In this document: positions 30,893 through 46,693 of the stretch, in pieces
How positions within the stretch are numbered: the first letter of the stretch is position 1
How the letters are laid out: each line of letters begins with the position of its first letter
Assembly (NCBI GenBank): GCA_021792755.1
Contig: JAJYUA010000011.1
Span: forward strand, 42,242 to 106,241
Length of the DNA: 64,000 bases
Source: Pseudomonadota bacterium
GTDB lineage: Bacteria > Pseudomonadota > Gammaproteobacteria > Steroidobacterales > Steroidobacteraceae
Direction: 5' to 3'
The notes under the pieces: generated by a model
Database searches by the model: none
What the model saw: only the letters and a program-made list of their open reading frames with translations
Told to the model about the DNA's origin: nothing
Translations under genes and position numbers: made by a program

Positions 30893-31074
30893 CCTCTCGA
30901 CCCCCCGCGTTGCCGTAAACGGCAAGGATACCGGGTCAGTGCGGGAGGCTCGTTTTGCCCAGAACCGCCGCCAGAGAGTAAGCAATGGGATGGACGCCCC
31001 CACCCCTTAACGGCATCTGATGTGCCAAAGTGGGAGCGCAGAGCAACCACCGGAACGGAGCGGGAGCGTCCACC

Positions 31075-31392
31075 ATGAAGATTACGACAGTCGGCATTGA
31101 TTTGGCGAAGAACGTCTTTCAGGTTCACGGCGTGGATGAGCGCGGTAAGGCGGTACTGAAGAAGCAGCTCAAGCGCCACCAGGTGCTGGTGTTGTTCAGC
31201 AACATGCCGCCGTGTCTGATCGGCATGGAAGCGTGCGGCGGAGCGCACTTCTGGGCCCGGCGGCTGCAGGCCCAGGGCCACACCGTGCGCCTCATGGCGC
31301 CACAGTTCGTCAAGCCGTACGTGAAGAGCAACAAGAACGATGCAGCCGATGCGGAGGCGATTTGTGAGGCGGTGGGCTGACCGAACATGCGA
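31075..31392 (+). pseudogene. IS110-family transposase, N-terminal fragment
   Basis: 101 codons from ATG 31075 match the N-terminal DEDD domain of IS110 transposases: TVGIDLAKNVFQVHGVDERG with the first catalytic Asp, GMEACGGAHFWARRL with the Glu, and SNKNDAADAEAICEA with the third/fourth acidic residues. An in-frame TGA replaces the expected Arg codon (EAVG-stop-PNMR), and family similarity stops about 12 bases later. The C-terminal Tnp_20 domain is absent. Confidence 0.88.
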
Positions 31393-31619: not shown

Positions 31620-32990
31620 GTGGCGGGCGCTCGCGGTGCGGAAATCACCATATTGGGCAGCGGTCCGGCCGCTGTGGCGACGGCCTGTGGATTGCGCCGG
31701 CTCGGACACGAGGTATCGTTGATCGGAGTTCCCGGCAATACGGCCTTCGAAGGGGTGTCGGAACGTACCCTGGCGCTTTTGCACCAATGGGGGCTTGCCG
31801 CTGCGGCGGACAGCCTCGGCGGCGCGGGTGAACGGCTGGGATCCTGGGCTGGTCGCGATCTGGCCGGCAACAGGGAATACGTGGTGGATCGGGCGCACTT
31901 CGATGCTGCGCTGGTGACTGACGCCGCTTCCAGCGGGGTGACAATTGTCAGCGATCGGGTGATCGGCTATGCACGCGGGGCGGGTCACTGGCGGGTACGG
32001 ACCCGGCACGCAAGCATCGATTGTCGCGTCGTGATCGATGCGCGCGGACGGCGTGTGCGCCGGGCGTTGCGCAAGGGACCCGACCTCATTGCGGTATGTC
32101 AACGATTCCGCACGCGACACGCTGCGAAAGTGCTGACCCGAATAGAGGCCCTTCCCCAAGGCTGGTGCTGGCTGGCCACGAACGGTCGCGGCATGAGCTG
32201 GCTGCAAGCAGTGTGCTCGCGTAACGAGCGCTCGCTGCGCTTTGGACTTGAGCGGCATTTGGGTAGTATTCTCGCTGCGGCGCCGCAAACCGCCGCGGCA
32301 TTGGCCGGGGCCACGTCCGAGGGAGTTGCGCTGGCACGTGCCGCAACGGCCTCTCTTTCCGTGCGGCAGGACGTTGGGGGTGTGTTTTGCACCGGCGATG
32401 CGTTGGTGGCGTTCGATCCGCTTTCGGGTCAGGGGATATATGAAGCACTGCGATCGGCGGCGGTGACGGTGGCGGCGGCGCACAGCTACTGCTCGGCAGG
32501 TGAATGGGGTCCGGTTGCCCGCTTCGTGCGCGAACGGGCGTGCGATTTGTGGGGCCGGAGGAGCGAGTCGGCCGCCCTCTTTTACGAGCAGCAGGCCGGG
32601 CAGATGCCGTCGGCTTTTTGGGTCCGGTCGGCCGCGGCGTACGCGGACTGCCAACTCGCCGATCGGTTCGCTGTCGCGGGTGAGCCCCGAATCGAGCGCC
32701 GGCCTGTGCTCGATGGCTCGCTGATCGAGCTGCGGCGGGTGGTGGTCACTGCGCAATCCCCGCGGGGCGTGTGGCAGGTCGATGGGATCGATCTGGCCGA
32801 GTTGGTCGATTTCCTGCGCGCGGCGCACACCACGGACGTCGAGCGGATCGCGCTGCGATTTTCTTGTTCGCCCAAGGCGGTTGCGCATGCGATGCAGTGG
32901 CTGAGGGCACACGGGCTTTTGGGGGCCGGCTGCAAGTACGGCGCCGGGAGCGACGGCGGTGTAAAGTCAAGCGGATCGAGTCGCGAATGA
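31620..32990 (+). CDS. qhpG: QhpG, flavin-dependent monooxygenase for CTQ cofactor biogenesis
   Basis: 456 residues, GTG start with GGGAG upstream. The N-terminal FAD-binding motif is ITILGSGPAAVATACGLRRL, and the second FAD motif is GVFCTGDALVAFDPLSGQGI (~258), as in tryptophan-halogenase/PHBH-like monooxygenases. In the Paracoccus system, QhpG dihydroxylates the precursor tryptophan of the QhpC subunit on the way to cysteine tryptophylquinone, using O2. It is the first gene of an operon in which all other qhp genes follow within 30 bp or overlap. The C-terminal ~100 residues (VDGIDLAELVDFLRAAH ... VAHAMQWLRAHGLL) look like a small helical, possibly winged-helix, domain that may bind the peptide substrate (inference). 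Confidence 0.85.
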   Translation: MAGARGAEITILGSGPAAVATACGLRRLGHEVSLIGVPGNTAFEGVSERTLALLHQWGLAAAADSLGGAGERLGSWAGRDLAGNREYVVDRAHFDAALVTDAASSGVTIVSDRVIGYARGAGHWRVRTRHASIDCRVVIDARGRRVRRALRKGPDLIAVCQRFRTRHAAKVLTRIEALPQGWCWLATNGRGMSWLQAVCSRNERSLRFGLERHLGSILAAAPQTAAALAGATSEGVALARAATASLSVRQDVGGVFCTGDALVAFDPLSGQGIYEALRSAAVTVAAAHSYCSAGEWGPVARFVRERACDLWGRRSESAALFYEQQAGQMPSAFWVRSAAAYADCQLADRFAVAGEPRIERRPVLDGSLIELRRVVVTAQSPRGVWQVDGIDLAELVDFLRAAHTTDVERIALRFSCSPKAVAHAMQWLRAHGLLGAGCKYGAGSDGGVKSSGSSRE

Positions 32991-33006: not shown

Positions 33007-34620
33007 ATGCTCATGCACTGGAGAGTCTCGTCGCTCATTTCATGCGGGGTGGCGGCGGTAGCCGCGCTGCTCGGTACAGTGGATGCGGCGCACGCGGCGA
33101 TGATGCCCCCCGCGCCGGCGCGAGCAGGATTGACCGCTGTGCAGGCGCATTGTTCCGCGTGCCACCGAGAGACGGCGCCGGGGCATTTCGATCGCATCAG
33201 CGAGGAGCGCAAGACCCCCGAAGGCTGGGCGATGACGATTTTCCGGATGCAGAACGTGCATGGCGTGAGGCTGACCCAGAAACAATTGCGCACCATCATC
33301 CGGTATCTGAGCGACGTGCAGGGCCTTGCGCCGTCGGAGATACGCGCCGGCCGTTTCGCACTGGAGCGTCGTCCCAACCATCCGATCCTCAAATTGCCCT
33401 ACAACCTGCCGGTCATGTGCGGGCGATGCCACAGCCTGGCGCGCGTGGCGCTGACGCGGCAGCCCGCGTCCGAATGGCGCAAGCTGATCAATTTCCACGT
33501 TGGCCAATTTCCGTTTCTCGAGTACCAGGATGGCAGCCGCGACATCCGCTGGTGGAAGATCGCCAGCACGCAGCTGCCGGCCGAACTGGCCAAGCTCTTT
33601 CCGCTGCATAGCGCGGCGTGGCGGCAGTGGAGGAATCGCCCGCGCGCGGATCTGGCGGGGGAGTGGATCGTGCACGGCGACACGCCGGGCCGGGGGGATT
33701 ATTACGGAACGGCGCTCATCAAGCGCAAAAGCTGGGACCGGTACGGGGCGCGTTACGTGCTGCATTACGCGAACGGCGCTGCGTTTGACGGCTCCTCGGA
33801 CGCGATCGTGTACACGGGGTTTCAGTGGCGCGGCACGGGCACGCTCGGCGGCAAGTCCGTACACGAGGTGTACTTCGCCTCTGCCAACGGCGCACGCATC
33901 GGCGGCCGGTGGTTTCTGGACGGTCACGCCGAGATTGGCGGGGACTGGGACGCCGCCCGCATCGCGGGAGCGGCAAAGGTCATGGCCGTGATCCCCGGTG
34001 CCCTGAAAGCGGGAACCAGGCAGCGGGTGATCGTGGTCGGCAGAGGACTGCGCGGCGGCGTTGACCTTGGGCCGGGGACGACAGCCAGGATTGTGGCGCG
34101 CCGCCCCTATGGACTCATCCTCAGTGTACGCGTGAACGCCCATGCGGCACCCGGGTACCGTACGGTACGCGTCGGCGGCGTGTGGAAAAGCGATCTGCTG
34201 GCCGTTTACCGGCGCGTGGAGCGCCTGGAGGTCCAGCCGGCCTTTGCGATCGCCCGCCTGGGCGGTGGCACGCTCGCCCCGGTGGATGCGCAATTCCAGG
34301 CGATCGGCTACACGAATGTGGTCGGCGCGCACGGGAAGGTCAGCGCCGTGCGCCTCGGTGCAATGCCGGTGACCTGGAGCGTGGAGCCGTTCAACGCCGA
34401 AGCCGCCAAGCGCGAGGATGTCCGCTTCGCGGGCACGCTGAATCAGGACGGACTGTTCCTGCCGGCCGAAGGCGGACCGGATCCGAAGCGCCGGTTTTCC
34501 GCCGACAATACCGGCGATCTTTATGTCGTGGCGACTCGCAAGACGGGCAAAACCGCCGTCGTGGGTAAAGCGCACCTGATCGTGACCGTGCAGCGCTGGA
34601 TCCATCCCCCGATCTATTGA
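33007..34620 (+). CDS. qhpA: Quinohemoprotein amine dehydrogenase alpha subunit, dihaem cytochrome c
   Basis: 537 residues with a Sec signal peptide (SLISCGVAAVAALLGTVDAA, cleavage near residue 31). Two haem c motifs are present: CSACH (~48-52) and CGRCH (~138-142). The beta-barrel domains of the QHNDH alpha subunit follow (WRGTGTLGGKSVHEVYFAS, ~280), with Ig-like repeats at the C-terminus. In the periplasm this subunit takes electrons from the CTQ cofactor of the gamma subunit and passes them to a cytochrome or azurin. It lies 16 bp after qhpG and 13 bp before qhpD. ATG 33013 is an alternative start. Confidence 0.94.
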   Translation: MLMHWRVSSLISCGVAAVAALLGTVDAAHAAMMPPAPARAGLTAVQAHCSACHRETAPGHFDRISEERKTPEGWAMTIFRMQNVHGVRLTQKQLRTIIRYLSDVQGLAPSEIRAGRFALERRPNHPILKLPYNLPVMCGRCHSLARVALTRQPASEWRKLINFHVGQFPFLEYQDGSRDIRWWKIASTQLPAELAKLFPLHSAAWRQWRNRPRADLAGEWIVHGDTPGRGDYYGTALIKRKSWDRYGARYVLHYANGAAFDGSSDAIVYTGFQWRGTGTLGGKSVHEVYFASANGARIGGRWFLDGHAEIGGDWDAARIAGAAKVMAVIPGALKAGTRQRVIVVGRGLRGGVDLGPGTTARIVARRPYGLILSVRVNAHAAPGYRTVRVGGVWKSDLLAVYRRVERLEVQPAFAIARLGGGTLAPVDAQFQAIGYTNVVGAHGKVSAVRLGAMPVTWSVEPFNAEAAKREDVRFAGTLNQDGLFLPAEGGPDPKRRFSADNTGDLYVVATRKTGKTAVVGKAHLIVTVQRWIHPPIY

Positions 34621-34633
34621 CGGAGCAGGCTTC

Positions 34634-36058
34634 ATGATCTTCGATTCCGCCAATGCTCACCTCGTTCCGCTCGCCGGCCGGGCGATGCTATTGCACGTCC
34701 CGACGACGGCGCTGTTCGAGCTCGATGAGTTGGGGATGGAGGTGCTGAGGCTCGTGCAGGCCGACCGGAGCCTGGACGCCGAGCGAATCCGCGCGCGACT
34801 CTCGAGCCGTTTTGCAGGCGAGGCGGTCGGCGCGCTCATCGAGCAGCTGATCCGGCTGCAGGTCCTGCGGCCCGAGGGAGAAAGCCGGCCGATCAACCCC
34901 TCTTACGTCCACGTCGAAGCCTATCCGCTGAGCACCATCGTTCTCAATGTCAACACCGGCTGCAATCTCGCCTGCCGCTACTGCTACAAGGAAGATTTGG
35001 ACGTACCCGTCGCGGGACGGCGCATGGGGTTCGACGTGGCGGCGCGCAGTGTCGATATGCTGTTCTCGCAGGGGCAGGAGCGACGGAGGCTGGGGATCGT
35101 GTTCTTCGGCGGCGAGCCCCTCTCCAACATGCCGCTGATCCGCCAGGTGGTGGACTACGCCGAGGCGCGGGCGAACGGGCTCGGCAAGACGGTGGATTTC
35201 TCTCTCACGACCAACGCCACGCTGCTCACGGAGGAGCTCATCGGCTACTTCGATGCGCACCGCTTCGGGCTTTCGGTCAGCATCGACGGGCCCCGGGTCG
35301 TGCACGACCGCAACCGCCTCACGGTGGGCGGGCGCGGCACTTATGAGGTGGTGGCTCGCAAAGCGCGCTTGCTGCTGGGGCGGTACCGCTCCAAACCGGT
35401 GGGCGCGCGCGTGACGTTGACCGCCGGCACGACCGAGGTTGAGGCCATCCACGAGCATCTGCGCGACCGGCTCGGCTTTCACGAGGTCGGTTATGCCCCC
35501 GTGACCGCCGCCGAGGGGGCCGGCCATGCACTCTCGGAAGAGGAGCTGACCGAGGTGTATGCGGGGTTCGAGCGCCTCGGCGGTCAATATCTGACCGCGG
35601 CGCTCGCGGGAGCGAACACCGGGTTTTCCAACCTGCACCAGCTGATGACGGACCTGCACGAAGGACGGCGTAAGACGCTGCCGTGCGGGGCCGGGGTGGG
35701 CCTGCTCGCCGTCGATCACCAGGGCGGCCTGAACTTGTGTCATCGGTTCACCGGCTCTGAATTGCCGACCTTCGGCAGCGTCGAGCAGGGCATCGCGGCC
35801 GAGCGGCTCGGGGCTTTTCTCGAGCGCGCCGCGGATCGCAGCGGCACGCATTGTGCGACGTGTCACATTCGCAATCTGTGCGCCGGCGGCTGCTATCACG
35901 AGTCCTGGATCCGCTACGGCGATCCCCATCATCGCACGTATCACTACTGTAACCTGTTGAGGCGTTGGGTCGATTTCGGCATCCGCGTCTATGCCGACAT
36001 CAATGCCCGTAATCCGAAGTTCTTCAGCGCTCACATCGAGTCGAGGAGAGCCGCATGA
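34634..36058 (+). CDS. qhpD: QhpD, radical SAM/SPASM maturase of the QHNDH gamma subunit
   Basis: 474 residues. The radical SAM cluster motif is CNLACRYCY (CX3CX2C, ~112-119), with FFGGEPLSN as the glycine-rich SAM motif. A C-terminal SPASM domain holds auxiliary [4Fe-4S] cluster cysteines ([20 protein letters not shown], then [19 protein letters not shown]). QhpD forms the intrapeptidyl Cys-Asp/Glu thioether bonds in QhpC in the cytoplasm. The N-terminal ~90 residues are a peptide-binding-like domain ([14 protein letters not shown]). Its stop overlaps the qhpC start (ATGA), consistent with enzyme and substrate being made together. Confidence 0.95.
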
Positions 36059-36396
36059 GTGGACTGAAATCCGTCAATCACAAGGCCGATCTGCTGCTCG
36101 AGGCGGCCGAATCGGGGCACGTGGAGGAAGTCACCGCCATGGAGACCGTCGCCGGATGCGTCACCACCTTCGATCCGGGCTGGGAGGTGGACCCCTTCGG
36201 TGGCGTAGCCTCGCTGTGCCAGCCGATGGAGGCGGATCTGTACGGATGTTCCGACCCGTGCTGGTGGCCTGCGCAGGTGCCGGACACCATGAACACCTAC
36301 CCGAACTGGCAGGAAGGCAAGCCTTCGGCGCAGCACGACTGGCGCGAGCTCGATCCCGTGTACCCCGATACCAATGCCGTGTTTCCCAAGAAATGA
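36055..36396 (+). CDS. qhpC: QhpC, CTQ-bearing gamma subunit of quinohemoprotein amine dehydrogenase
   Basis: 113 residues. Every cross-linked position known from the Paracoccus protein can be read off. If mature residue 1 is Met29, Cys35-Glu44, Cys55-Asp61 and Cys69-Asp77 are the thioether pairs (mature 7-16, 27-33, 41-49), and Cys65/Trp71 (mature 37/43) form cysteine tryptophylquinone, in the stretch CSDPCWW. The 28-residue leader ([20 protein letters not shown]...) is removed by QhpE after modification. There is no Sec signal; export is attributed to QhpF. This is the catalytic subunit that oxidises primary amines to aldehydes plus ammonia. Confidence 0.96.
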
Positions 36397-36423: not shown

Positions 36424-37533
36424 ATGAACCTGAAATTCGTTCTGCCGGTGCTGCTCGCCGGCCTGCTGGCGGGCTGCGGCTCCGTGCTCTCGCCGGGACA
36501 TGCGAGGCGCGATTTCCTCGTGACCGGCGCAGCTCCGGATCATCTTTTTGTCATCAATCCTCGCACGCAGAAAGTCGTGTCGGACTTTACGATACCCGGC
36601 GCGCATGATTACGTGAGCGTCATCGTCCCTTCGCCGAGCGGAAAGGTGGCGTACGTTCTCGTCAACCGGACGCGCAGCATCGCCGGGATCAACCTGCGTA
36701 CCGGAAAGGAAGTCTTTCGCGCGAACCTCGAACAGCCCGGCGAGCGCGTGACGTGCATGTATGCGTTCGATGTCACGCCGAACGGAAAGGAGCTCATCGT
36801 CTACGTGTACCGCACGCGCTTGGAAATCGATCAGTACAGGGTTCAAGCGCCGCGGTTCCTCATATTCAGCACCACCGCCGGTCTGCATGCCAAGCCGCTG
36901 CGGGAGTTTCCGGCGCCCCGCAGGGTCCAGATGATCCTCGCGAAGCACGATGGCCGCAGCTTCTTTGCGATCGGCTTCAATCTGTACGAATACGATCTGA
37001 GGACCGGACGACTCATCGAGAGGCGCGGCATCCTCAACTGGCACCGCCCGCATCACTTGCGGCCGGACATGCTGGCGTTCTGGCCGGTCACCGAGCCGAC
37101 GGGCATCTTCTCCAGCCCCATCTATTCGACCCTGGTCGGTCCGGGAACCCCTCCGGGAGGGGTTCCGGAAACGTCCTTGCTGACCCTGAATCTGCATGAC
37201 GGTCACCTCGCCTATCACGACATCGGCAGGACGAACGCTTTGATCTTCTCCACCGTCATCGGTCCCGACCGGAGGTGGGCGTACGGTGCCTACACGCAGC
37301 TCACCAAAATCAAGATGGACGGCACGCACTGGCGGGTCGCCGACCGGGTGACGCTGCCGCATACGTATTATTCGGTTAACATCTCTCCGAACGGCAAGGA
37401 AGTCTATGTGGGCGGGACGATGTGCGACGTCATCATCTATGATGCGAGGACCATGCGCGAGAAGGGCGACGTCCAACTACCCGGATGCGCTGATCAGGCG
37501 ACGGCGACGCTGCGCGTCATTGAGCGGCGGTAA
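36424..37533 (+). CDS. qhpB: QHNDH beta subunit, seven-bladed propeller, possible lipoprotein
   Basis: 369 residues. YVTN-type beta-propeller repeats are evident (FVINPRTQKVVSDFTIPG, VLVNRTRSIAGINLRTGKE, NISPNGKEVYVGGTMCDVII). The beta subunit packs against alpha and gamma and lines the substrate channel. The N-terminus MNLKFVLPVLLAGLLAGCG ends in a good lipobox (LAGC, Cys18). If used, the enzyme would be tethered to a membrane through this subunit; otherwise it is a Sec signal with cleavage a little later. It lies 27 bp after qhpC. Confidence 0.92.
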   Translation: MNLKFVLPVLLAGLLAGCGSVLSPGHARRDFLVTGAAPDHLFVINPRTQKVVSDFTIPGAHDYVSVIVPSPSGKVAYVLVNRTRSIAGINLRTGKEVFRANLEQPGERVTCMYAFDVTPNGKELIVYVYRTRLEIDQYRVQAPRFLIFSTTAGLHAKPLREFPAPRRVQMILAKHDGRSFFAIGFNLYEYDLRTGRLIERRGILNWHRPHHLRPDMLAFWPVTEPTGIFSSPIYSTLVGPGTPPGGVPETSLLTLNLHDGHLAYHDIGRTNALIFSTVIGPDRRWAYGAYTQLTKIKMDGTHWRVADRVTLPHTYYSVNISPNGKEVYVGGTMCDVIIYDARTMREKGDVQLPGCADQATATLRVIERR

Positions 37534-37557: not shown

Positions 37558-39237
37558 GTGTACGTGAGCTTCGCGTGGTTGTGGCCGTACGTCCGGCGTC
37601 ACCGGAGTGCGATCCTGGCGGTGATGGCCCTGGCGGCTCTCACGTCGGCGCTCTCGGCCGTGCAGCCGTATTTATCGAAGCTGATCATCGACGATGGTCT
37701 GCTCGGAAGGCACTTTCACCTCCTCGCCGAGCTTTGCGCCGCAATCGTCGCGCTGGCGGGCTGTGGGTTCGCCTTGGGAGCTTTGAACCGGCTGCTGTAT
37801 GTCCGTGTCTCGGGGAATATTCTGTTTGCCATCCGCGAGGACGTCTACGCCCACATCCTGAGGCTTCCGCCCGCCTTCTTCCGCGTCCGTCCGGTCGGGG
37901 ATATCGTTACCCGCCTCGACGGCGATGTCGCCGAGATCCAGCGCTTCAGCACCGACTCGGTGCTGGCGGTCGTCAACGGTGTGCTGCTGCTGATCTTCTC
38001 CGCCGCCATCATGGCGGCGATGAGCCCCGATCTGACGCTGATCGCGGCGTGCATACTGCCATTGCATCTGCTCTTGCGGCATCGGGCGCGGCGGCAGGTC
38101 TCCGAGAGCACCCGAGAGGTTCGGGAATGGCGAGGCGTCATCACGCATTTCCTGGTCGAGACGCTCGGGGCGGCGAAGGCGGTGCAGAGTGCGGGCGCCG
38201 AGCGCTGGGAGCGGGATCGCCTGGGCGGCTTGAACCAGGGGTTGCTGCGCCGGGTCGTCCGTCAGCAACTCGTCGGGTACACGATCGGTGCGCTGTCGAG
38301 CCTGCTGTCCCATTTGACCACCGCCGTCGTGTTCATCATCGGCGGGTGGGAGGTGATCCACGGCTCGCTCACGGTGGGCACCCTGGTGGCCTTTACGGCC
38401 TACCTGGCGCGCGGCACGGGCTCCGCCACCTCGCTGATGGGGCTCTACACCGCGTATCAGCGCGCCGGCGTGAGTCTGAAGCGTGTGCAGGAATTGAGGG
38501 ACGTCGAGCCCATGCGTGCCGGCGGTGGCGGCGCGCGTGTCCTGGCGGCGCGCTCCGGTCCCATCCGATTCCAGGCTGTGAGCTTCCGGTACCCGGACAG
38601 CGAGCGGGCACTGTTCGAGGGTCTTACGCTGGACATCGCCGCCGGATCCAAGGTGGTGCTGTTCGGCGACTCGGGGGCGGGCAAATCCACACTGATCGAT
38701 TTGCTGCGCGGATTCGTCCAGCCCGACTGTGGGCGGATTCTCCTCGATGGAGCGGATCTGTCGGATTACGATCTGCAGTCGGTCCGGTGCCGTATTCCGG
38801 TGCTGGAAACCGATCCAGTGCTGTTTCGCGGCAGCATCCTGGACAATCTCCGCTACGGGCATTTCGATGCGCCGGCGGAGCGGGTGTTTGAAGCGGCCAG
38901 GCAGACCGGGGTAGAGCCGTTCGTGTTGGCGCTGCCGGAAGGGTACGCCACCGAACTTGGCTCCCGCGGGGCGGGCCTGTCCACGGGTCAGCGGCAGAGG
39001 GTTGCCGTCGCCCGGGCGCTGCTCGGCTCGCCCTTTGCGCTGGTGCTCGATGAGGCAACCAGCAACCTCGATGCAGCCGCAGCCCGTGCCATGCACGCGC
39101 TGATCGACCGGTATTTCCCGCAACAGACTCGCATCGTGATCACCCACTCCCCGGATGCGGTGCCGAGAGCGGACCGCATTTTGGCGTTGCGCGACGGTCG
39201 GGTCATCGACGGGGAGCTTGCACGCGCGTATGCCTGA
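37558..39237 (+). CDS. qhpF: QhpF, ABC transporter (fused permease-ATPase) exporting the gamma subunit
   Basis: 559 residues, half-transporter layout. The N-terminal type I ABC exporter domain (~1-310) has six membrane segments, beginning FAWLWPYVRRHRSAILAVMA. The ATPase domain has Walker A GDSGAGKSTLI (~368), signature LSTGQRQRVAVARALL (~476), Walker B ALVLDEATS (~500) and H-loop IVITHS. In QHNDH biogenesis, QhpF carries the modified QhpC across the inner membrane. GTG starts at 37558 and 37564 are both possible (GGGAAGG upstream). The stop overlaps the qhpE start. Confidence 0.9.
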   Translation: MYVSFAWLWPYVRRHRSAILAVMALAALTSALSAVQPYLSKLIIDDGLLGRHFHLLAELCAAIVALAGCGFALGALNRLLYVRVSGNILFAIREDVYAHILRLPPAFFRVRPVGDIVTRLDGDVAEIQRFSTDSVLAVVNGVLLLIFSAAIMAAMSPDLTLIAACILPLHLLLRHRARRQVSESTREVREWRGVITHFLVETLGAAKAVQSAGAERWERDRLGGLNQGLLRRVVRQQLVGYTIGALSSLLSHLTTAVVFIIGGWEVIHGSLTVGTLVAFTAYLARGTGSATSLMGLYTAYQRAGVSLKRVQELRDVEPMRAGGGGARVLAARSGPIRFQAVSFRYPDSERALFEGLTLDIAAGSKVVLFGDSGAGKSTLIDLLRGFVQPDCGRILLDGADLSDYDLQSVRCRIPVLETDPVLFRGSILDNLRYGHFDAPAERVFEAARQTGVEPFVLALPEGYATELGSRGAGLSTGQRQRVAVARALLGSPFALVLDEATSNLDAAAARAMHALIDRYFPQQTRIVITHSPDAVPRADRILALRDGRVIDGELARAYA

Positions 39238-39922
39238 GCGTGCGTGGACAGTCGCAGTCGTGGATAGCGGGATCGGACCGCTGCCGGCGCATGCCGTGAT
39301 ACGGATCAAGCGGTTCGTGGACGAGGGTGATCAGATCCTCGAGCGTCCACCGGTCGAAGATCCCATAGGCCACGGCACGGTGGTCGCCGGCATCATCGCC
39401 TCCTCGCGGCGGCCGGTGCGGCTGCTGATCGCACAGGTGCTGAATGAGCGGGGACGCTCCACGGCGGCGGCGCTCGCCGCGGCGGTCGATTGGGCGGTGC
39501 AGCACCGGGCGCAGCTGTTGCATTTGAGCCTGGGGCTGGCCTGCGACCGCGCGGTTCTGAGGGCCGCAATCGGCAGGGCGGTTGCGGCGGAAGTGCTCGT
39601 GGTCGCGTCGGCGCCCGCTCGCGGAGCGGCTACGTACCCCGCATCTTATCGCGGGGTGATCCGGGCGACAGGGGATGCGCGGTGCGACGGGGACCAGATT
39701 GCATACCTCGGCACCGCCGCGGCGGATTTCGGAGCCTGTCCCGTGCACCACTCACAGTCGGGGAAGGTTGCTCGCGGTGCCAGCGTCGGCGCGGCGCACT
39801 TTTCACGGTACATTGTCAATCACGTTGCGGCCGGACTTGCGGTCCAGAAGACTCATGAGGCGCTGCGGCAGGTTGCGACCTTCCATGGACCGGAAAGACA
39901 TCAACCGGCGGCACGGACTTGA
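39230..39922 (+). CDS. qhpE: QhpE, subtilisin-like protease removing the QhpC leader
   Basis: 230 residues from ATG 39230, overlapping the qhpF stop. Subtilase triad segments: TVAVVDSGIGP (Asp, ~11), GHGTVVAGIIAS (His, ~47) and GKVARGASVGAAHFSRYI (Ser, ~192; family consensus GTSxAAP is degenerate, as expected for this dedicated branch). There is no signal peptide. QhpE is known to cut the leader of cross-linked QhpC. It lies within the operon, and its TGA overlaps the TTG start of the next gene. Confidence 0.87.
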   Translation: MPERAWTVAVVDSGIGPLPAHAVIRIKRFVDEGDQILERPPVEDPIGHGTVVAGIIASSRRPVRLLIAQVLNERGRSTAAALAAAVDWAVQHRAQLLHLSLGLACDRAVLRAAIGRAVAAEVLVVASAPARGAATYPASYRGVIRATGDARCDGDQIAYLGTAAADFGACPVHHSQSGKVARGASVGAAHFSRYIVNHVAAGLAVQKTHEALRQVATFHGPERHQPAART

Positions 39923-40905
39923 CTGACGGGCCGGTGACCGTGGATCGTGTACCTGAGGGGAGCGCGTGGCGCTTCGGCTTACGGGCCGCAAACGACGCGG
40001 TGACGGTGCAATGGACGCTGTCATTTACCGAGCCGGAGTCGCTGGTGCGCTGCGTCCGCGGGCTGTGCGATGCGGCGACGGATTGGCCCGGCCTGTTTGG
40101 GCTCGACTGCCCGGAGTGGGCCTCGCTGCTCGATCGCCAGCGGGTCGCGCGCATCCATTTTGGCAACGAATTCTGCCAACGACTGTTACCGTCGGTCAGG
40201 ACGTTGCAGACGGTCCTCGGCGCAACGGCCGCTTCCGGTCTCGGATTCGGGCTCGCGCTTCCCATGCTGACCGACGACAGTCTCGAAGAAGCGGACGCGC
40301 TGCTGGCCATGCTGCCCGAGGGCACCGAGGTCACGGTGAACGATTGGGGCTCGATGCGGCGCCTCACGCGGCGATTCCCCGGTTTGAGGCCGACCGCGGG
40401 CAGACTCCTGTGCAGGATGCTGAAGGAGCCGCGCGCGCCTTCGGCGGCCTTTTTGGAATTGGGGGGACATGGATTCATGACGCCGGGGCTCGAGAGCCTG
40501 CTCGAGCGCTTCGGAGTGAGCCGCCTCGAAATCGACGTGCCGCCGTTTGCCCGCGGCACGGATCTGCACGCGCAGCGAGGGCGGATTTCCGTGCACGCGC
40601 CCTTCGGTTTCGCGACCACCGGGCGCATTTGCCGCATCGGCAACCTGCACCGGCCGATGGCGCGCAAGTTCGAAACCGGGCACATCTGCGCGCGCGAATG
40701 CCTGACATACTGGTGCGAGCTGACGGCCAGGGGCGATCCGCACGGCGGTAGGATGAGACTCTTCCAACGTGGCAACACGATCTTCTATCGCCACACTGTG
40801 ACGATGACGCAGGCGCTTGCCGAGGCGGTCGCGGCGGGCTCGGTCGATCGTGTGGTGATATCGGGGGACTGGAATGCGGCTGGTCGCACCGATTTCGGCA
40901 CCTGA
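39919..40905 (+). CDS. U32-family protein resembling UbiV (putative O2-independent hydroxylase subunit)
   Basis: 328 residues, TTG start overlapping the qhpE stop. The TIM-barrel U32-type core includes EVTVNDWGSMRRL (~137-149), as in UbiV-like proteins. A cysteine group C238-x18-C257-x3-C261 resembles the C-x12-C-x3-C part of the [4Fe-4S] site in E. coli UbiV; Cys45, Cys50 or Cys64 could supply the fourth ligand. UbiU/UbiV hydroxylate ubiquinone precursors without O2, and other U32 proteins hydroxylate RNA. As it is translationally coupled to qhp genes, a role in QHNDH maturation (for example hydroxylation of the QhpC tryptophan) is inferred, not shown. Protease activity is unlikely. Confidence 0.72.
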   Translation: MTDGPVTVDRVPEGSAWRFGLRAANDAVTVQWTLSFTEPESLVRCVRGLCDAATDWPGLFGLDCPEWASLLDRQRVARIHFGNEFCQRLLPSVRTLQTVLGATAASGLGFGLALPMLTDDSLEEADALLAMLPEGTEVTVNDWGSMRRLTRRFPGLRPTAGRLLCRMLKEPRAPSAAFLELGGHGFMTPGLESLLERFGVSRLEIDVPPFARGTDLHAQRGRISVHAPFGFATTGRICRIGNLHRPMARKFETGHICARECLTYWCELTARGDPHGGRMRLFQRGNTIFYRHTVTMTQALAEAVAAGSVDRVVISGDWNAAGRTDFGT

Positions 40906-41881
40906 GGACATACCGGTCCTGGCCGGGGCCGGTGCCGATGAGTTTTATTGCGGGCTGGTGCCGCGGGAGTGGCAGGCGCGTTTCGGGCGATCCACGTTGA
41001 ATCGCAGGATGAGTGGCAACCTGCGCAGCTTCGAGGAGTTGGCGCGCGCGGCCGCCCTGGCGCACGAGCTCGGCAAGCGCGTGTCGGTCGCCTTCAACGC
41101 GCAGAGCTATTCGGCGGACCGATGGGAGGATCTGCTCGCGATGCTCGAACGGGTTGCCGGGAGCGGCGCCGACGGGTTGATCGTCGGCGACCTCGCGCTG
41201 CTGGCAGCGCTGGGCGAGCGCGGCTTGCCACTGCGCCTGCACCTGAGCTCGGTGGCCTCGTGTCACAACGCCGAGACGGCACAACTGGCGGCCGAGCTTG
41301 GTGCGACGCGGGTTATCCTGCCGCGTCACGTGACGCTGAGCGAGGTCCGCGCGATGTGCCACGCCCTGCCGGCGCTCGAAATCGAAGCCTTCATCCTCAA
41401 CGACGGCTGCGTGTTCGAAGAGGGCTCGTGCCACACGCTGCACCTGCCCGGGCCGCTCGGCGGACCGATCTGTCTCGAGCGTTTTCGTCACGAATATCAC
41501 CGCGGTGACGGCAAAACGCTTTGCGAGTCCGAGCTTGAACGACTTCAATCCAACGACGAAGCCTGGAAAAAATGGCTTTGGTACGTGTTTTCATGCGGTT
41601 TCACGGTCACGGCGGAGGGGTTGCCGTACGGTCCGTGCGGGCTATGCGCGATCCCACCGCTTGCGGCCGCCGGCGTCGCCGCCGTCAAGATCGCCGGACG
41701 CGAAGGCCCGCTCGAGCGTCGGCTGAAGAGTGTCGAGATGGCGCGGGCCGTACTCGGACGCCATGGCGGCGATGACGAGCGGAATGTGACCGCCTACGCC
41801 CGAGGGCTGCGCGGCAATCGCGAACTCTGCCAGAGCGGCCTGATGTGCTATTACCGCGAGGTCAGCCCCTCATCCGCGTAA
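40874..41881 (+). CDS. U32-family protein resembling UbiU (putative partner of the preceding gene)
   Basis: 335 residues, overlapping the preceding gene by 32 bp. It starts with the typical U32 strand-loop LVAPISAPEDIPVLAGAGAD EFYCG. Cysteines C179-x6-C186, C200 and C255/C258 match the layout of the four [4Fe-4S] ligands of UbiU (C-x6-C, a third after a short loop, a fourth about 40-55 residues later in PYGPCGLC). Other conserved U32 features are VGDLALLAALGERGLPLRLH (~105-123) and TRVILPRHVTLSEV (~145). The pair mirrors the UbiU-UbiV heterodimer. This is the last gene of the qhp operon; the AGTATCC element begins at its stop codon. Confidence 0.75.
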   Translation: MRLVAPISAPEDIPVLAGAGADEFYCGLVPREWQARFGRSTLNRRMSGNLRSFEELARAAALAHELGKRVSVAFNAQSYSADRWEDLLAMLERVAGSGADGLIVGDLALLAALGERGLPLRLHLSSVASCHNAETAQLAAELGATRVILPRHVTLSEVRAMCHALPALEIEAFILNDGCVFEEGSCHTLHLPGPLGGPICLERFRHEYHRGDGKTLCESELERLQSNDEAWKKWLWYVFSCGFTVTAEGLPYGPCGLCAIPPLAAAGVAAVKIAGREGPLERRLKSVEMARAVLGRHGGDDERNVTAYARGLRGNRELCQSGLMCYYREVSPSSA

Positions 41882-41946: not shown

Positions 41947-42023
41947 CCATGGCTGGTTTCTGAATACCCGGCGGGTCCGGCGAGTTGATTTCCGGGTGCG
42001 GGATGACGGGGGAGGGGTGCTTC

Positions 42024-43574
42024 ATGCAGGTGACCACGCGAAAGAGTCCGAGCGCGGTGTCCTCGGGGTTGGGCAATGATCTGTCCGGGATTTCGCCGTC
42101 CAATGCCGCATTTCTCGGCAAGCCCCGCCGACTGCTCATAGACGGCGTCTGGATCGATGCGATCAGCGGCCGGACCTTCGAGGTGCGCGATCCCTCGAGT
42201 GACCGCGTCATCGCGAGCGCCGCTCTCGGCGAGGCTGCCGACATCGACCGGGCGGTGGCCGCCGCGCGGCGCGCCTTCGAGGACTCCGACTGGTCGCGCA
42301 TGAAGCCTGGGGATCGCGAGCGTGTCCTGCATCGGATCGCCGATCTCGTTGAGCGCCATGCCGACGAGCTGGCCGAGCTCGAGGCCATCGATAACGGCAA
42401 GTCGATCGTGATGGCCCGTCACGTGGATCTGAAGCATGCCATCGAAGTCTGGCGGTATATGGCCGGCTGGCCCACCAAGCTCGAGGGGCAAACACTGCCG
42501 GTCTCCGGAACGCTCGTCCCCGGCCAGGAGTATGCCGCATTCTCGCTGCGCGAGCCCGTGGGGGTGATCGGCGCCATCATCGCCTGGAACTTCCCGTTCT
42601 TGCTCGCAACGTGGAAGGTCGCGCCGGCACTCGCCGCCGGTTGCACCGTGGTCTTGAAGCCGGCAGAGGAGACGCCGCTCACCGCTTTGCGACTCGGTGA
42701 GATCGTCCTCGAGGCGGGGCTGCCCAAGGGGGTGCTGAACGTCGTCACCGGCATGGGCGCCACCGCCGGTGCGGCGTTGGCGGAACATCCGGGCGTCGAC
42801 AAAATCACCTTCACCGGATCCACCGAGGTGGGAAGGCTCGTCGTACGCGCCGCCTCGGGCAACCTGAAAAAAGTCACGGTCGAGCTGGGAGGAAAGTCGC
42901 CCGCGATCGTGCTCGATGACGCGGATCTCGACAACGCCATCCCGGGAGTGACCTCTGGGATATTCTTCAATCAGGGTCAGGTGTGCTGCGCCGGCTCGCG
43001 CCTGTATGTCGCCAAGCGCCACTTCGATCGTGTCGTCGAGGGCGTGGCGAGGCGGGCGAAGGCCATGAAGCTTGGGCCCGGCTTGGACTCGAGCGCCGAG
43101 ATTGGACCATTGGTCTCTTCCGTGCAGCGGGAGCGTGTCATGAGCTACATCGACCAAGGGCTTGCGGCGGGCGCCTCCGCGGTCGCAGGGGGACGGCGGG
43201 TTGAATCGCCGGGGTATTACGTCGAACCGACGATATTCACGGCCGTCTCAGACGACATGACGATCACGCGGGAGGAAATCTTCGGGCCCGTCCTGGTGGT
43301 GCAGCCATTCGAAAACCTGGGAGAAATCGCGCGGCTGGCCAATGAGTCGATTTATGGTCTGGCGGCCAGCATCTGGACGCGCGACGTGAAAAAGCTCTTC
43401 ACCCTGGCGCCGAAGATCCGCGCCGGTACGGTGTGGGTCAACTGTCACAATGTGCTGGATGCCGCCATGCCATTCGGAGGGTACAAACAATCCGGGTGGG
43501 GCCGGGAGCTGGGGCGCGAGGCGGTCTACGCATGCCTGGAGAGCAAGTCCTTGTGCATCAATTATGCGATGTAG
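42024..43574 (+). CDS. NAD(P)-dependent aldehyde dehydrogenase, phenylacetaldehyde-dehydrogenase-like
   Basis: 516 residues from ATG 42024, with GGAGGGG as Shine-Dalgarno. ALDH motifs: IIAWNFPFLLATWKVAPALA (~185; catalytic Asn), LKPAEETPL (Lys for NADP/NAD ribose), FTGSTEVG, the general base Glu in VTVELGGKSP (~288) and the nucleophile Cys in FNQGQVCCAGSR (~322). It most resembles the phenylacetaldehyde/betaine-type class. It follows the amine dehydrogenase operon, whose product is an aldehyde, so it probably oxidises that aldehyde to the acid. The N-terminal extension of ~25 residues is low in complexity. Confidence 0.9.
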   Translation: MQVTTRKSPSAVSSGLGNDLSGISPSNAAFLGKPRRLLIDGVWIDAISGRTFEVRDPSSDRVIASAALGEAADIDRAVAAARRAFEDSDWSRMKPGDRERVLHRIADLVERHADELAELEAIDNGKSIVMARHVDLKHAIEVWRYMAGWPTKLEGQTLPVSGTLVPGQEYAAFSLREPVGVIGAIIAWNFPFLLATWKVAPALAAGCTVVLKPAEETPLTALRLGEIVLEAGLPKGVLNVVTGMGATAGAALAEHPGVDKITFTGSTEVGRLVVRAASGNLKKVTVELGGKSPAIVLDDADLDNAIPGVTSGIFFNQGQVCCAGSRLYVAKRHFDRVVEGVARRAKAMKLGPGLDSSAEIGPLVSSVQRERVMSYIDQGLAAGASAVAGGRRVESPGYYVEPTIFTAVSDDMTITREEIFGPVLVVQPFENLGEIARLANESIYGLAASIWTRDVKKLFTLAPKIRAGTVWVNCHNVLDAAMPFGGYKQSGWGRELGREAVYACLESKSLCINYAM

Positions 43575-43659
43575 CGGCGTAGGATAGGTGCAGCTCGGCC
43601 CGGGGCGGGCTGGAAAACAGTCGAAAGCCGCGGCGCGTCGCGGGCGGGTGGGGGTTCGT

Positions 43660-45348
43660 GTGCGTGAGCCAAGCTACGTCTGTGGGCGGACCGATTCGCC
43701 GCTGCTCTACCGGACGGTGGGGGAGGTACTGCGACTGGCCGCCGAGCAGTGGCCGGAGCGCGAGGCGCTGGTGGTCTGTCATCAAAAAGTGCGGCTGACC
43801 TACGCTGGGCTCTACGACAGCGCCAAGGAGCTGGCCGGGGCACTGCTCGCGTTGGGATTGCAGCCGGGTGACCGGGTGGGCATCTGGTCGCCGAACAACT
43901 GCGAATGGGTGCTCACCCAGTTCGCGACGGCGCTGGCGGGTCTCATTCTTGTCAACATCAATCCGGCCTACCGGACGGCCGAGTTGGACTATGCGCTTCG
44001 CGCGGTCGGTTGCAGGGCGCTCGTGCTGGCGCCCGCATTCAAATCGAGCGATTACGTCGGCATGGCGAGATCCCTGCTTGCGCAAGGGGATTGGGCGGGC
44101 GAGGGCAGGGTGCGCTGCAGAGAATATCCTGCGCTGCAGTTTCTTATTCAGTTGGGCGCCGGTCCGCGACGGGGGTTCATGTCCTTCGGTGCGCTGTGCG
44201 AGGCGGGACGGGCCGCCAACCCGAATCCGCTCGAAGCCGTTGCGGCAGGCCTCGATCCGGACCAGCCGATCAATATCCAATTCACGAGCGGCACGACGGG
44301 GCTGCCCAAGGGCGCCACGCTGACGCATTTCAACATCGTCAACAACGGGTTTTTCGTCGGCGAGGGCATGCGGTTCAGCCCGCAGGACCGACTTTGCATA
44401 CCGGTGCCCTTGTATCACTGCTTCGGCATGGTTCTGGGCGTGCTCGCCGCGGTGACGCACGGGGCGACGATGGTGTTTCCGTCGGAAACCTTTGATGCCG
44501 AGGCTACCCTGCAGGCGGTCGCCACGGAGCGCTGTACGGCCTTGCACGGCGTGCCGACGATGTTCATCGCGGAGCTTGGCCATCCCCGCTTCACGGAATT
44601 CGATCTGTCGCTGTTGCGCACGGGGATCATGGCAGGGGCACCGTGCCCGATCGCCGTCATGCGCAGGGTCATCGATGAGATGCACATGCGCGAGGTCACG
44701 ATCTGCTACGGCATGACCGAAACCAGCCCGGTGAGCTTCCAGTCGGACGTGCACGACCCGATCGACAAACGGGTCTCGACCGTCGGAAGGGTGCACCCGC
44801 ACGTGCAGGTGAAAATCATAGATGGCGAGAACGCAGTCGTGCCGAGAGGCACGCCCGGTCAGCTCTGTACGCGGGGCTACAGCGTCATGCGCGGTTACTG
44901 GGAGGACGCCGAGCGTACCGCGGAAGCGGTGGACGAGGCGGGCTGGATGCACACCGGTGACCTGGCGGTTCTCGACGGCGGCGGTTATTGCAACATCGTG
45001 GGAAGGGTCAAGGACATGATCATCCGTGGCGGCGAGAACATCTATCCCCGGGAAATCGAAGAGTTTCTATACCGGCATCCGAAAGTGCTCGATGTGGCCG
45101 TCGTGGGGATCGCCGATCAGAAGTACGGCGAAGAGGTCTGCGCGGTCATCCGCCTGCACGAGGGCGCGAGCGCCGATCCGCAGGAGATCATCGAGTTCTG
45201 CCGCGGGCAGATCGCCCACTACAAAGTGCCCCGTTACGTGTATTTCGTCAGGGAGTTTCCCATGACGGTGACCGGAAAGGTGCAAAAGTACCTGATCCGG
45301 CAGCAGCTCGAGCAGGAGCTCGGGGTGCAGCGCGAGCGCACCGCGTAA
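43660..45348 (+). CDS. AMP-forming acyl-CoA ligase (FadD3/MenE-like ANL family)
   Basis: About 562 residues from GTG 43660, with GGGGG before it; in-frame GTGs at 43588 and 43648 would add up to 24 residues. P-loop [20 protein letters not shown] (~205), [12 protein letters not shown] (~345), [13 protein letters not shown] hinge (~430) and C-terminal catalytic Lys in [15 protein letters not shown] (~540). Fatty-acid or aryl-acid activating enzyme. Its position after the aldehyde dehydrogenase suggests activation of an acid, perhaps an alternative fate of the amine-derived acid, since the Hpa route needs no CoA ester. Confidence 0.9.
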
Positions 45349-45865: not shown

Positions 45866-46693
45866 TCAGCGCAGCTGCATGACCGCCACGGTGCAGCCGA
45901 CGGCGAATATGGGGATGGGCACGTAGCACCACAGCTCCCCGGTGCATCCTTCGGTCGCGCCCGCGACCGCGATGAAGGTGCGGATCTCGAATCCCCCCTG
46001 GCCGCCTTCGCGCCACACATCCTCGTCCCGATAGGCGAGGAGCGAGTCCCGGCGGTTGTGCAGGAGCTTGTCGAGAAATTCCCGGTCCCAGGCCTCATTG
46101 ATGCGCCCGGAGTCCGGCGTCGCCGGCCAATGCGAGATTCCCCCGGTGCCGATCACGGCGATGCGCTCGGGCCGCGCATCACAGGCGCGCCGCAGCGAGC
46201 GCCCGAACTCATAGGCGCGTTTGAGCGGAATCAGCGGCGGACCCTGGCAATTGATGTTGACGGGGATGACCGGCAGGTCGTAGCGCGGAGTGAGGAAGTG
46301 CAGTGGCACCATGATGCCGTGGTCGAATTTCCACTCCTCGGCGTACGCAAGGTCGATGTCGTTCATGACCTCCTGGATCAGCACGCGCGAGAGTGACTTG
46401 TTCCCCGGGATGCGGTGCCGCTCGATGCCGAGCCATTTCTCGTCCTCGATCGGCCCCTCGTAATGCTCGGCCATGCCGACGCAGATGGCCGGCATGTTGT
46501 TCATGAAGAAATTGGCGAAGTGCTCCGCGGCAATCACCACCAGCACGTCGGGCCGGCAGGCTTCGATCGCGTCCCGCATGCGTCCCATCGCCGCATAGAA
46601 AGTGTCGCGGGCCTGCGGGTCGGCACGCCCGGCGCGCCCGGTGATACCGGGCGCGTGAGAGCAGACGCCCGCGAAAACCAATGCCATGATCAA
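45866..46693 (-). CDS. LigB-type class III extradiol ring-cleavage dioxygenase catalytic subunit
   Basis: 275 residues. LALVFAGVCSHAPGITG-like N-terminus gives the first Fe(II) ligand His (VCSHAPG, ~12). VLVVIAAEHFANFFMNNMPA (~50-70) carries the second His, and ISHWPATPDSGRINEAWDRE (~190-210) contains the conserved His/Asp region of LigB proteins. It cleaves a catechol next to a hydroxyl. In this cluster the substrate is most likely homoprotocatechuate (3,4-dihydroxyphenylacetate), taking the place of HpaD. Protocatechuate or gallate are the alternatives, because the closest architecture is the LigAB/DesB group. It is paired with ligA 28 bp upstream. Confidence 0.85.
   Translation of the reverse strand: MIMALVFAGVCSHAPGITGRAGRADPQARDTFYAAMGRMRDAIEACRPDVLVVIAAEHFANFFMNNMPAICVGMAEHYEGPIEDEKWLGIERHRIPGNKSLSRVLIQEVMNDIDLAYAEEWKFDHGIMVPLHFLTPRYDLPVIPVNINCQGPPLIPLKRAYEFGRSLRRACDARPERIAVIGTGGISHWPATPDSGRINEAWDREFLDKLLHNRRDSLLAYRDEDVWREGGQGGFEIRTFIAVAGATEGCTGELWCYVPIPIFAVGCTVAVMQLR

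What the first reader, a model, noticed from the sequence alone, without database searches (positions are those of the whole stretch)
39919..41881. UbiU/UbiV-like U32 pair embedded in a quinohemoprotein amine dehydrogenase operon
Two U32-family genes follow qhpE with TTGA and 32-bp overlaps, so they are translationally coupled to QHNDH maturation genes. Both keep cysteine patterns like those of the [4Fe-4S] hydroxylases UbiV (C238-x18-C257-x3-C261) and UbiU (C179-x6-C186, C200, C255/C258). U32 proteins of this type hydroxylate without O2. QhpG, the first gene of the operon, hydroxylates the QhpC tryptophan with O2. Hypothesis: the pair is an O2-independent alternative or helper for tryptophylquinone formation, letting the enzyme mature under low oxygen. 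I do not know whether this gene association has been reported.
Basis: partly seen in the sequence, partly recalled or inferred. Interest (0 to 1): 0.85.

Follow-up and report, generated by a model that had tools for sequence, protein, structure and literature searches.

The report
Oxygen-free maker of a protein quinone
Two genes beside a bacterial amine-degrading enzyme occur, in genome after genome, either next to or instead of the oxygen-using gene that builds the enzyme's quinone cofactor, so they likely build that quinone without oxygen.

Summary
X (39919-40905) and Y (40874-41881) follow qhpG-A-D-C-B-F-E with TTGA and 32-base overlaps. Y is a U32 protein; X is a very divergent UbiV-like protein that Pfam does not detect. 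X keeps four UbiV-type cluster cysteines (127-128 of 128 relatives), Y seven cysteines (198-199 of 199).

X sits beside Y in 79 of 80 database loci; 56 of 80 hold qhp core genes. Among 49 qhp genomes, 45 of them drawn by taxonomy and picked by QhpC or QhpD, 21 have QhpG only, 21 X-Y only, 6 both and 1 neither (cut-off contig). X-Y-only genomes include denitrifiers and Geobacter-type anaerobes (lifestyles recalled). QhpC in X-Y loci keeps the Cys and Trp that become cysteine tryptophylquinone (CTQ) in 50 of 50.

Best reading: X-Y is a U32-type hydroxylase pair that oxygenates the QhpC tryptophan without O2, as UbiU-UbiV does for ubiquinone. The chemistry is untested. It would explain how a denitrifier makes active quinohemoprotein amine dehydrogenases anaerobically. 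No paper found in the searched library joins tryptophylquinone and U32; the key 2019 Aromatoleum paper was not readable here.

The parts
31620..32990 (+). qhpG, O2-dependent FAD peptidyl-tryptophan dihydroxylase; the step that X-Y is proposed to replace or back up
   Evidence: NF049967 305.6 bits, cut-off 240
33007..34620 (+). qhpA, diheme alpha subunit
   Evidence: TIGR03908 551.6 bits, cut-off 274.35
34634..36058 (+). qhpD, radical SAM enzyme that makes the thioether bonds in QhpC
   Evidence: TIGR03906 683.1 bits, cut-off 453
36055..36396 (+). qhpC, gamma subunit; CTQ residues Cys65 (codon 36247-36249) and Trp71 (36265-36267)
   Evidence: NF037958 162 bits, cut-off 50; residues 50 of 50
36424..37533 (+). 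qhpB, beta subunit
   Evidence: TIGR03907 318 bits, cut-off 223.2
37558..39237 (+). qhpF, ABC exporter
   Evidence: PF00664 and PF00005; position in operon
39230..39922 (+). qhpE, subtilisin-like leader protease
   Evidence: NF049966 209.4 bits, cut-off 165, on the longer open frame from 39155; ATG at 39230 overlaps the qhpF stop
39919..40905 (+). gene X, UbiV-like protein (working name qhpV); cysteines C86 (40174-40176), C238 (40630-40632), C257 (40687-40689), C261 (40699-40701)
   Evidence: profile comparison with UbiV
40874..41881 (+). gene Y, UbiU-like U32 protein (working name qhpU); invariant cysteines C179 (41408-41410), C186 (41429-41431), C200 (41471-41473), C255 (41636-41638), C258 (41645-41647), C319 (41828-41830), C325 (41846-41848)
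   Evidence: PF01136 E 4.5e-36
41985..43574 (+). aldehyde dehydrogenase, probably oxidises the aldehyde made by the amine dehydrogenase; 103 bases behind Y (start codon not certain)
   Evidence: PF00171 E 3.1e-175; function inferred

Best explanation
The gene pair X-Y is predicted to be a UbiU/UbiV-like iron-sulfur hydroxylase that likely puts the oxygen atoms of cysteine tryptophylquinone (CTQ) on the QhpC tryptophan without O2, next to or in place of the O2-dependent flavoprotein QhpG. Proposed course: QhpD first makes the thioether bridges in QhpC (known for other species). X and Y form a heterodimer, with one [4Fe-4S] cluster in X (C86, C238, C257, C261) and at least one in Y. In the cytoplasm it hydroxylates Trp71 of the precursor (Trp43 of the mature chain) at the two ring positions that QhpG uses, probably with prephenate as oxygen donor, as in other U32 hydroxylases. 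QhpE and QhpF then trim and export the product. Shown: operon, conservation, cysteines, complementarity with QhpG. Inferred: clusters, heterodimer, substrate, oxygen donor.
For: 1) Synteny: X beside Y in 79 of 80 loci; 41 of 80 loci hold all six of QhpA-F, 15 some of them, 24 none. In Desulfuromonadales X-Y lies inside the operon, between qhpB and qhpF. 2) Complementarity: 49 qhp genomes: QhpG only 21, X-Y only 21, both 6, neither 1; Fisher p 2.2e-7. Without the four genomes reached through X-Y (5, 21, 18, 1 in the order both, QhpG, X-Y, neither) 3.8e-7. Without a further 13 that the draws returned but that were already known from X-Y loci (3, 21, 7, 1) 2.6e-4. 3) From the other side, 36 of 50 genomes with X-Y lack a QhpG over its cut-off (50 of the 77 genomes behind the 80 loci were tested). 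4) QhpC of the window and 49 X-Y loci keeps the CTQ Cys and Trp and the crosslink residues in 50 of 50, genomes without QhpG included. A Desulfuromonadales QhpC (L187) passes the gamma-subunit model, 122.6 bits with cut-off 50. 5) Cysteines: X 127-128 of 128; Y 199 of 199, or 198 of 199 with one cut short. 6) Homology: Y to a UbiU/TrhP/RlhA profile E 1.1e-30; X to UbiV E 1.8e-4. 7) UbiU-UbiV binds two [4Fe-4S] clusters and hydroxylates without O2 (PMC6747719, passages). QhpG takes both oxygen atoms from O2 (PMC7876137, passages), so organisms that make the enzyme without O2 need another route. 8) In L187, an X-Y-only Desulfuromonadales operon, an aldehyde:ferredoxin oxidoreductase follows, which fits anaerobic amine use.
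Against: No biochemistry. The genome counts are not corrected for relatedness. On a QhpD tree 9 independent pairs on well supported branches differ in X-Y; QhpG goes the other way in 4.6 of them on average, the same way in none, and does not differ in 4.4; sign-test median p 0.06. Six of 49 genomes carry both, the window among them, so the pair is not strictly a replacement. Ten of 28 X-Y genomes tested for QhpC have none: three are Firmicutes with a distant pair, one is a planctomycete, six are other metagenome-assembled genomes, one of them with qhpE and qhpF beside the pair. Some X-Y-only carriers (Herminiimonas, Janthinobacterium, a Glaciimonas, an Acetobacteraceae genome) are not organisms I know as anaerobes. 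Y keeps three of the four UbiU ligand positions (C179, C186, C200); the residue nearest the fourth, C241, is Cys in only 164 of 199. X is too divergent for Pfam; its profile does not find UbiV among six reference sequences with confidence (E 0.028); the better profile match (E 1.8e-4) covers only the first cysteine, and one reversed control (for Y) reached E 0.0022. The QhpD of L187 scores 354.9 bits, under the QhpD cut-off of 453.
Confidence: 0.8

Rival explanations
1. X-Y helps QhpG or QhpD (for example by delivering electrons or iron-sulfur clusters) and does not hydroxylate anything itself.
For: Same operon and translational coupling; present together with QhpG in 6 of 49 genomes; QhpD is an Fe-S enzyme.
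Against: X-Y occurs without QhpG in 21 of 49 qhp genomes, so it cannot only serve QhpG. The 21 QhpG-only genomes do without X-Y, and 20 of their 21 loci show QhpD (the other is cut by the contig end), so QhpD does not need it.
Confidence: 0.08
2. The X-Y-only genomes use another, undetected flavoprotein for the tryptophan, and X-Y does a different job (for example hydroxylates a quinone that accepts the electrons).
For: 50 of 50 genomes have distant flavoprotein matches to the QhpG model; one at about 105 bits is GoxB-like, and hits of 158-181 bits occur in both kinds of genome.
Against: No QhpG-like frame was found within the locus in 34 of 41 loci with all six core genes. The complementarity is with QhpG itself. 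The window's genome has a separate UbiU-UbiV pair over the NCBIfam cut-offs. A flavoprotein that needs O2 would not serve Geobacter-type anaerobes (recalled lifestyle).
Confidence: 0.07
3. X-Y is a peptidase pair, as the U32 label says, and processes QhpC.
For: Family name; Y matches PF01136.
Against: QhpE, the known leader protease, is present in 48 of the 56 X-Y loci that hold qhp core genes (some of the rest are cut). The invariant residues are cluster-type cysteines. Characterised U32 proteins of this type are Fe-S hydroxylases (PMC6747719, PMC11574389, passages).
Confidence: 0.03
4. X-Y is a second ubiquinone hydroxylase pair that only happens to sit in the operon.
For: Closest characterised pair is UbiU-UbiV.
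Against: The genome keeps a canonical UbiU-UbiV on another contig. The link to qhp is seen in distant lineages and in several gene orders. Y scores 87.9 bits against the UbiU cut-off of 440.
Confidence: 0.02

Closest known systems
UbiU-UbiV, O2-independent ubiquinone hydroxylases (U32 family; E. coli, PMC6747719)
   Same: Two adjacent U32-type genes; X keeps the UbiV cysteine order (C-xn-C-x-C-x3-C, third spacing 18 instead of 12); Y keeps the first three UbiU cysteines (C-x6-C-x13-C); a pair that stands beside an O2-dependent flavoprotein route
   Different: Order is UbiV-like then UbiU-like; low identity (Y to UbiU 25-28%); Y has four further invariant cysteines (C255, C258, C319, C325); linked to qhp, not ubi genes; predicted substrate is a protein
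QhpG, flavoprotein peptidyl-tryptophan dihydroxylase (PMC7876137)
   Same: Predicted same reaction on the same residue of QhpC; same operon; each occurs without the other in qhp genomes
   Different: FAD enzyme that takes oxygen from O2; no homology to X or Y seen
TrhP and RlhA, U32 RNA hydroxylases
   Same: Y is homologous (profile E 1.1e-30 with a mixed UbiU/TrhP/RlhA profile)
   Different: Single proteins acting on RNA, not a pair in an operon with a protein substrate
LodB/GoxB and MauG, makers of other tryptophylquinones (recalled)
   Same: Install oxygen on a protein tryptophan to make a quinone
   Different: Flavin or heme enzymes that need O2 or peroxide

Membership tests
U32 family (PF01136) | Y scores over the Pfam gathering cut-off | tested here: met
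   124.7 bits, cut-off 22.4
U32 family (PF01136) | X scores over the Pfam gathering cut-off | tested here: not met
   No match for X or for any of 32 X-family members; related only by profile comparison
UbiU | NCBIfam equivalog NF047963 over cut-off | tested here: not met
   87.9 bits, cut-off 440; the genome's own UbiU scores 527
UbiU | Four cluster cysteines, CX6CX16CX38C | tested here: not met
   Y has CX6CX13C in 199 of 199, but no invariant fourth ligand at the UbiU spacing: C241 in 164 of 199; C255 and C258 in 199 of 199
UbiV | NCBIfam equivalog NF047965 over cut-off | tested here: not met
   X has no NCBIfam match; the genome's own UbiV scores 348, cut-off 275
UbiV | Four cluster cysteines, CXnCX12CX3C | tested here: inconclusive
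   Four cysteines in the same order, C-x151-C-x18-C-x3-C, kept in 127-128 of 128; in register with UbiV in a weak profile alignment (E 0.0019); third spacing differs
UbiU-UbiV-type hydroxylase | Each protein binds a [4Fe-4S] cluster; heterodimer | not testable with these tools
   Needs purified protein
UbiU-UbiV-type hydroxylase | O2-independent hydroxylation, prephenate-dependent | not testable with these tools
   Needs an assay
qhp (quinohemoprotein amine dehydrogenase) operon | qhpA-G present with CTQ residues in QhpC | tested here: met
qhp operon, QhpG-replacing part | Present where QhpG is absent | tested here: met
   21 of 22 qhp genomes without QhpG have X-Y; in the other the qhp genes lie on a 5.4-kb contig

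The most novel reading that the evidence does not exclude
X-Y is the first O2-independent route to a tryptophylquinone and the first U32 hydroxylase that acts on a protein: a prephenate-fed, two-protein iron-sulfur enzyme, with more than one cluster in Y, that dihydroxylates a peptidyl tryptophan. Bacteria swap it with the flavoprotein QhpG according to oxygen, just as they swap UbiU-UbiV with the flavoprotein ubiquinone hydroxylases.
Probability: 0.6. Interest if true: 0.92.

Novelty: new variant of a known kind. Interest (0 to 1): 0.85.

Why it matters
All tryptophylquinone makers known to me take their oxygen from O2 or peroxide (QhpG from PMC7876137; others recalled). Yet a denitrifier, Aromatoleum aromaticum EbN1, is reported to degrade aromatic amines anaerobically with two such enzymes (title seen in the reference lists of PMC11231019 and PMC10413684; I recall its abstract stating that CTQ matures without O2, but could not read it). 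X-Y gives that gap a concrete candidate, with a prediction that one deletion can test. It would extend U32 hydroxylases from quinones and RNA to proteins, and give a genomic marker for anaerobic amine breakdown.

Tried and rejected
Rejected readings: peptidase (the leader protease QhpE is usually there, and the invariant residues are cysteines); second ubiquinone pair (own UbiU-UbiV elsewhere); QhpG helper (occurs without QhpG); see rivals.

Not in print, as far as searched: no paper in the open library holds 'tryptophylquinone' with 'U32' or 'quinohemoprotein' with 'peptidase U32'.
Full report
What is in the window. A complete qhp operon runs on the + strand: qhpG, qhpA, qhpD, qhpC, qhpB, qhpF, qhpE, then X and Y, then an aldehyde dehydrogenase. 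The X start overlaps the qhpE stop (TTGA), and Y starts 32 bases before the X end. The start of X is TTG; its closest relative (P0003, 87% identity) begins at the same residue. X and Y are named qhpV and qhpU here only as working names.

Family of the two proteins. Y matches Pfam U32 (E 4.5e-36) and, far below the equivalog cut-offs, UbiU (87.9 of 440 bits) and TrhP (55.5 of 534). X matches nothing in Pfam or NCBIfam, and 0 of 32 members of its family match U32 in Pfam. Profile comparison relates X to Y (E 1.6e-7) and to UbiV (E 1.8e-4). Nine controls for X with unrelated or reversed profiles gave E 0.03 to 0.66, a tenth, the QhpG profile, 0.0078; one reversed control for Y reached 0.0022. So the tie of X to Y is firm and the tie to UbiV modest. 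That larger UbiV alignment covers only the first X cysteine. A smaller one put the four X cysteines on the four UbiV cysteines (E 0.0019, probability 14%). A profile of X searched against six reference U32 sequences gave nothing significant (best E 0.0097, UbiV 0.028). The predicted X model is a barrel (pLDDT 79.6), Y likewise (83.4). The genome has its own UbiU and UbiV on another contig, both over their NCBIfam cut-offs, so X-Y is not the canonical ubiquinone pair.

Cysteines. In 128 X-family sequences, C86, C238, C257 and C261 are Cys in 127, 128, 128 and 127; the exceptions are a gap in a short piece and one Ser. In 199 Y-family sequences, C179, C186, C200, C255 and C258 are Cys in 199, C319 and C325 in 198 (one cut short), C241 in 164. 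Locus sequences of 220 residues or less (X) or 280 or less (Y) were dropped before these counts. UbiV uses CXnCX12CX3C and UbiU CX6CX16CX38C to bind [4Fe-4S] (PMC6747719, passages read). X fits the UbiV order with a longer third spacing. Y fits the first three UbiU ligands and has four more invariant cysteines; whether these give a fourth ligand, a second cluster or both is open.

Linkage to qhp. A scan of genome contigs with the Y alignment gave 106 stretches, 98 relatives, and kept the best 80 loci. X lies directly upstream of Y in 79; in the other, Y begins at the contig end. All six of QhpA-F are in the locus in 41, some in 15, none in 24. The 80 loci lie in 77 genomes. Of 28 genomes behind incomplete loci, 18 have QhpC. 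Ten have none: L010, L040, L044, L046, L050, L056 (qhpE and qhpF beside X-Y), L071 (planctomycete) and L074, L075, L083 (Firmicutes, 33-34% identity). L053 was not tested for QhpC; the genome of L015 and L032 has qhp elsewhere (L137). Gene order varies: X-Y after qhpE (window, Aromatoleum), inside the operon between qhpB and qhpF (Desulfuromonadales), on the opposite strand from it (L037, L179), or upstream of qhpA with an aldehyde dehydrogenase between (L031, L048). The pair follows qhp through rearrangements.

With or instead of QhpG. Of 50 genomes with X-Y searched for QhpG, 14 pass its cut-off of 240 bits; in the other 36 the best listed hit is at most 106.6 bits. One such hit, in Aromatoleum anaerobium, is a GoxB-like protein near a LodA-type piece. 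The reverse test started from qhp. Genomes were drawn by taxonomy and searched for QhpD or QhpC: 7 of 398 (phylum, QhpD over cut-off), 3 of 300 (order of Aromatoleum), 29 of 199 (its family), 5 of 118 (Desulfuromonadales), 7 of 337 (Alphaproteobacteria), 1 of 312 (the window's class), with overlaps between the draws. That gave 50 handles. Two (G324, G759) give the same coordinates and are taken as one genome, so 49. Four (G000, G426, G440, G401) were reached through X-Y as centres; 13 more came in the draws but were already known from X-Y loci. QhpG is in 28 of 50, Y in 26 of 50, X in 27 of 50; the additional genome, G962, has both X and Y in its operon. Result for 49: QhpG only 21, X-Y only 21, both 6, neither 1. 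The one without either (G1380) has its qhpA-D-C on a 5.4-kb contig. Fisher p is 2.2e-7; without the four centres (both 5, QhpG 21, X-Y 18, neither 1) 3.8e-7; without the 13 as well (3, 21, 7, 1) 2.6e-4. In 23 of the 27 X-Y genomes the pair lies within 7 kb of qhpC (coordinates). Within the one family, leaving out its centre, 9 have QhpG only, 14 X-Y only and 5 both.

Relatedness. On a tree of 78 QhpD sequences the presence of X-Y needs at least 12 changes and that of QhpG 11, so they were gained or lost many times. In 9 independent pairs on well supported branches that differ in X-Y, QhpG differs the other way in 4.6 on average, the same way in none, and does not differ in 4.4; the sign test gives median p 0.06. 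The direction agrees, but this stricter test is not significant. The rows were partly chosen through X-Y.

The substrate is still there. In 50 aligned QhpC sequences, from the window and 49 X-Y loci, the CTQ residues Cys65 and Trp71 and the other crosslink residues (C35, E44, C55, D61, C69, D77; pairing recalled) are identical in 50 of 50. With the 28-residue leader the first two are Cys37 and Trp43 (PMC7876137, passages). So lineages without QhpG still carry the residue that QhpG would hydroxylate. In PMC7876137 both oxygen atoms came from O2 and not from water, and a qhpG mutant made quinone-less QhpC (passages).

Lifestyle. Named X-Y-only carriers include Aromatoleum, Azoarcus, Magnetospirillum, Terasakiella, Sedimenticola selenatireducens and Geobacter-type Desulfuromonadales, but also Herminiimonas, Janthinobacterium and Glaciimonas; habits are recalled and were not tested. 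In L187 the operon is followed by an aldehyde:ferredoxin oxidoreductase. One genome, G862, has two qhp loci, each with X-Y, one also with QhpG nearby. Its chromosome of 4,296,230 bases has the length I recall for Aromatoleum aromaticum EbN1, the organism whose two amine dehydrogenases work in anaerobic growth according to a paper title seen.

Mechanism and confidence. The best-supported reading is that X-Y installs the CTQ oxygens without O2. Steps shown: operon, conservation, complementarity. Steps from established knowledge: QhpD crosslinks, QhpG chemistry, UbiU-UbiV clusters and O2 independence, prephenate as oxygen source in anaerobic ubiquinone synthesis (PMC11574389, passages). Steps inferred: that X-Y is a heterodimer, binds clusters, and acts on Trp of QhpC. 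The window's genome has both systems, which would let it make the enzyme with or without O2.

Novelty. The chemistry class (U32 hydroxylases) is known; a protein substrate and a role in a protein-derived quinone would be new. Literature searches found no paper that joins the two; the library holds only open-licence papers, and the closest paper could not be read.

Noticed in passing
L187:13177-14898, also beside the qhp operons of L072 and L178: In Desulfuromonadales the qhp operon is followed by an aldehyde:ferredoxin oxidoreductase (Pfam-confirmed in L187; L072 and L178 by similar protein starts, by eye), a possible whole pathway for anaerobic amine oxidation.
   Followed up: partly
L074:8832-10842, L075:9060-10996, L083:2440-4220: Firmicutes carry a distant X-Y pair, and no QhpC was found in their genomes; its substrate is unknown. 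In L075 a probable DAHP synthase gene (by eye) lies next to it.
   Followed up: no
G999:C1:1049325, G1059:C36:384, G440:C52:7788: Three Desulfuromonadales with qhp have a second, weaker X-like gene elsewhere in the genome.
   Followed up: no
L139 and L141 (Aromatoleum toluolicum, A. tolulyticum), L184: QhpG stands alone there, with no other qhp gene within the 10-19 kb read, while the qhp operon elsewhere in the genome carries X-Y: an orphan QhpG that could act in trans under air.
   Followed up: partly
L152:8695-15394: A GoxB-like flavoprotein and a LodA-type C-terminal piece with transposase-like frames (by eye) between them, in Aromatoleum anaerobium.
   Followed up: partly
window 31030-31380 and 26883-28268: An IS110-type transposase piece and a DDE transposase lie upstream of the qhp operon, which may have arrived as a mobile block.
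   Followed up: no
window 45866-46693 (-): A LigB-type ring-opening dioxygenase subunit lies downstream, behind an AMP-binding (acyl-CoA ligase type) gene (43588-45348).
   Followed up: no
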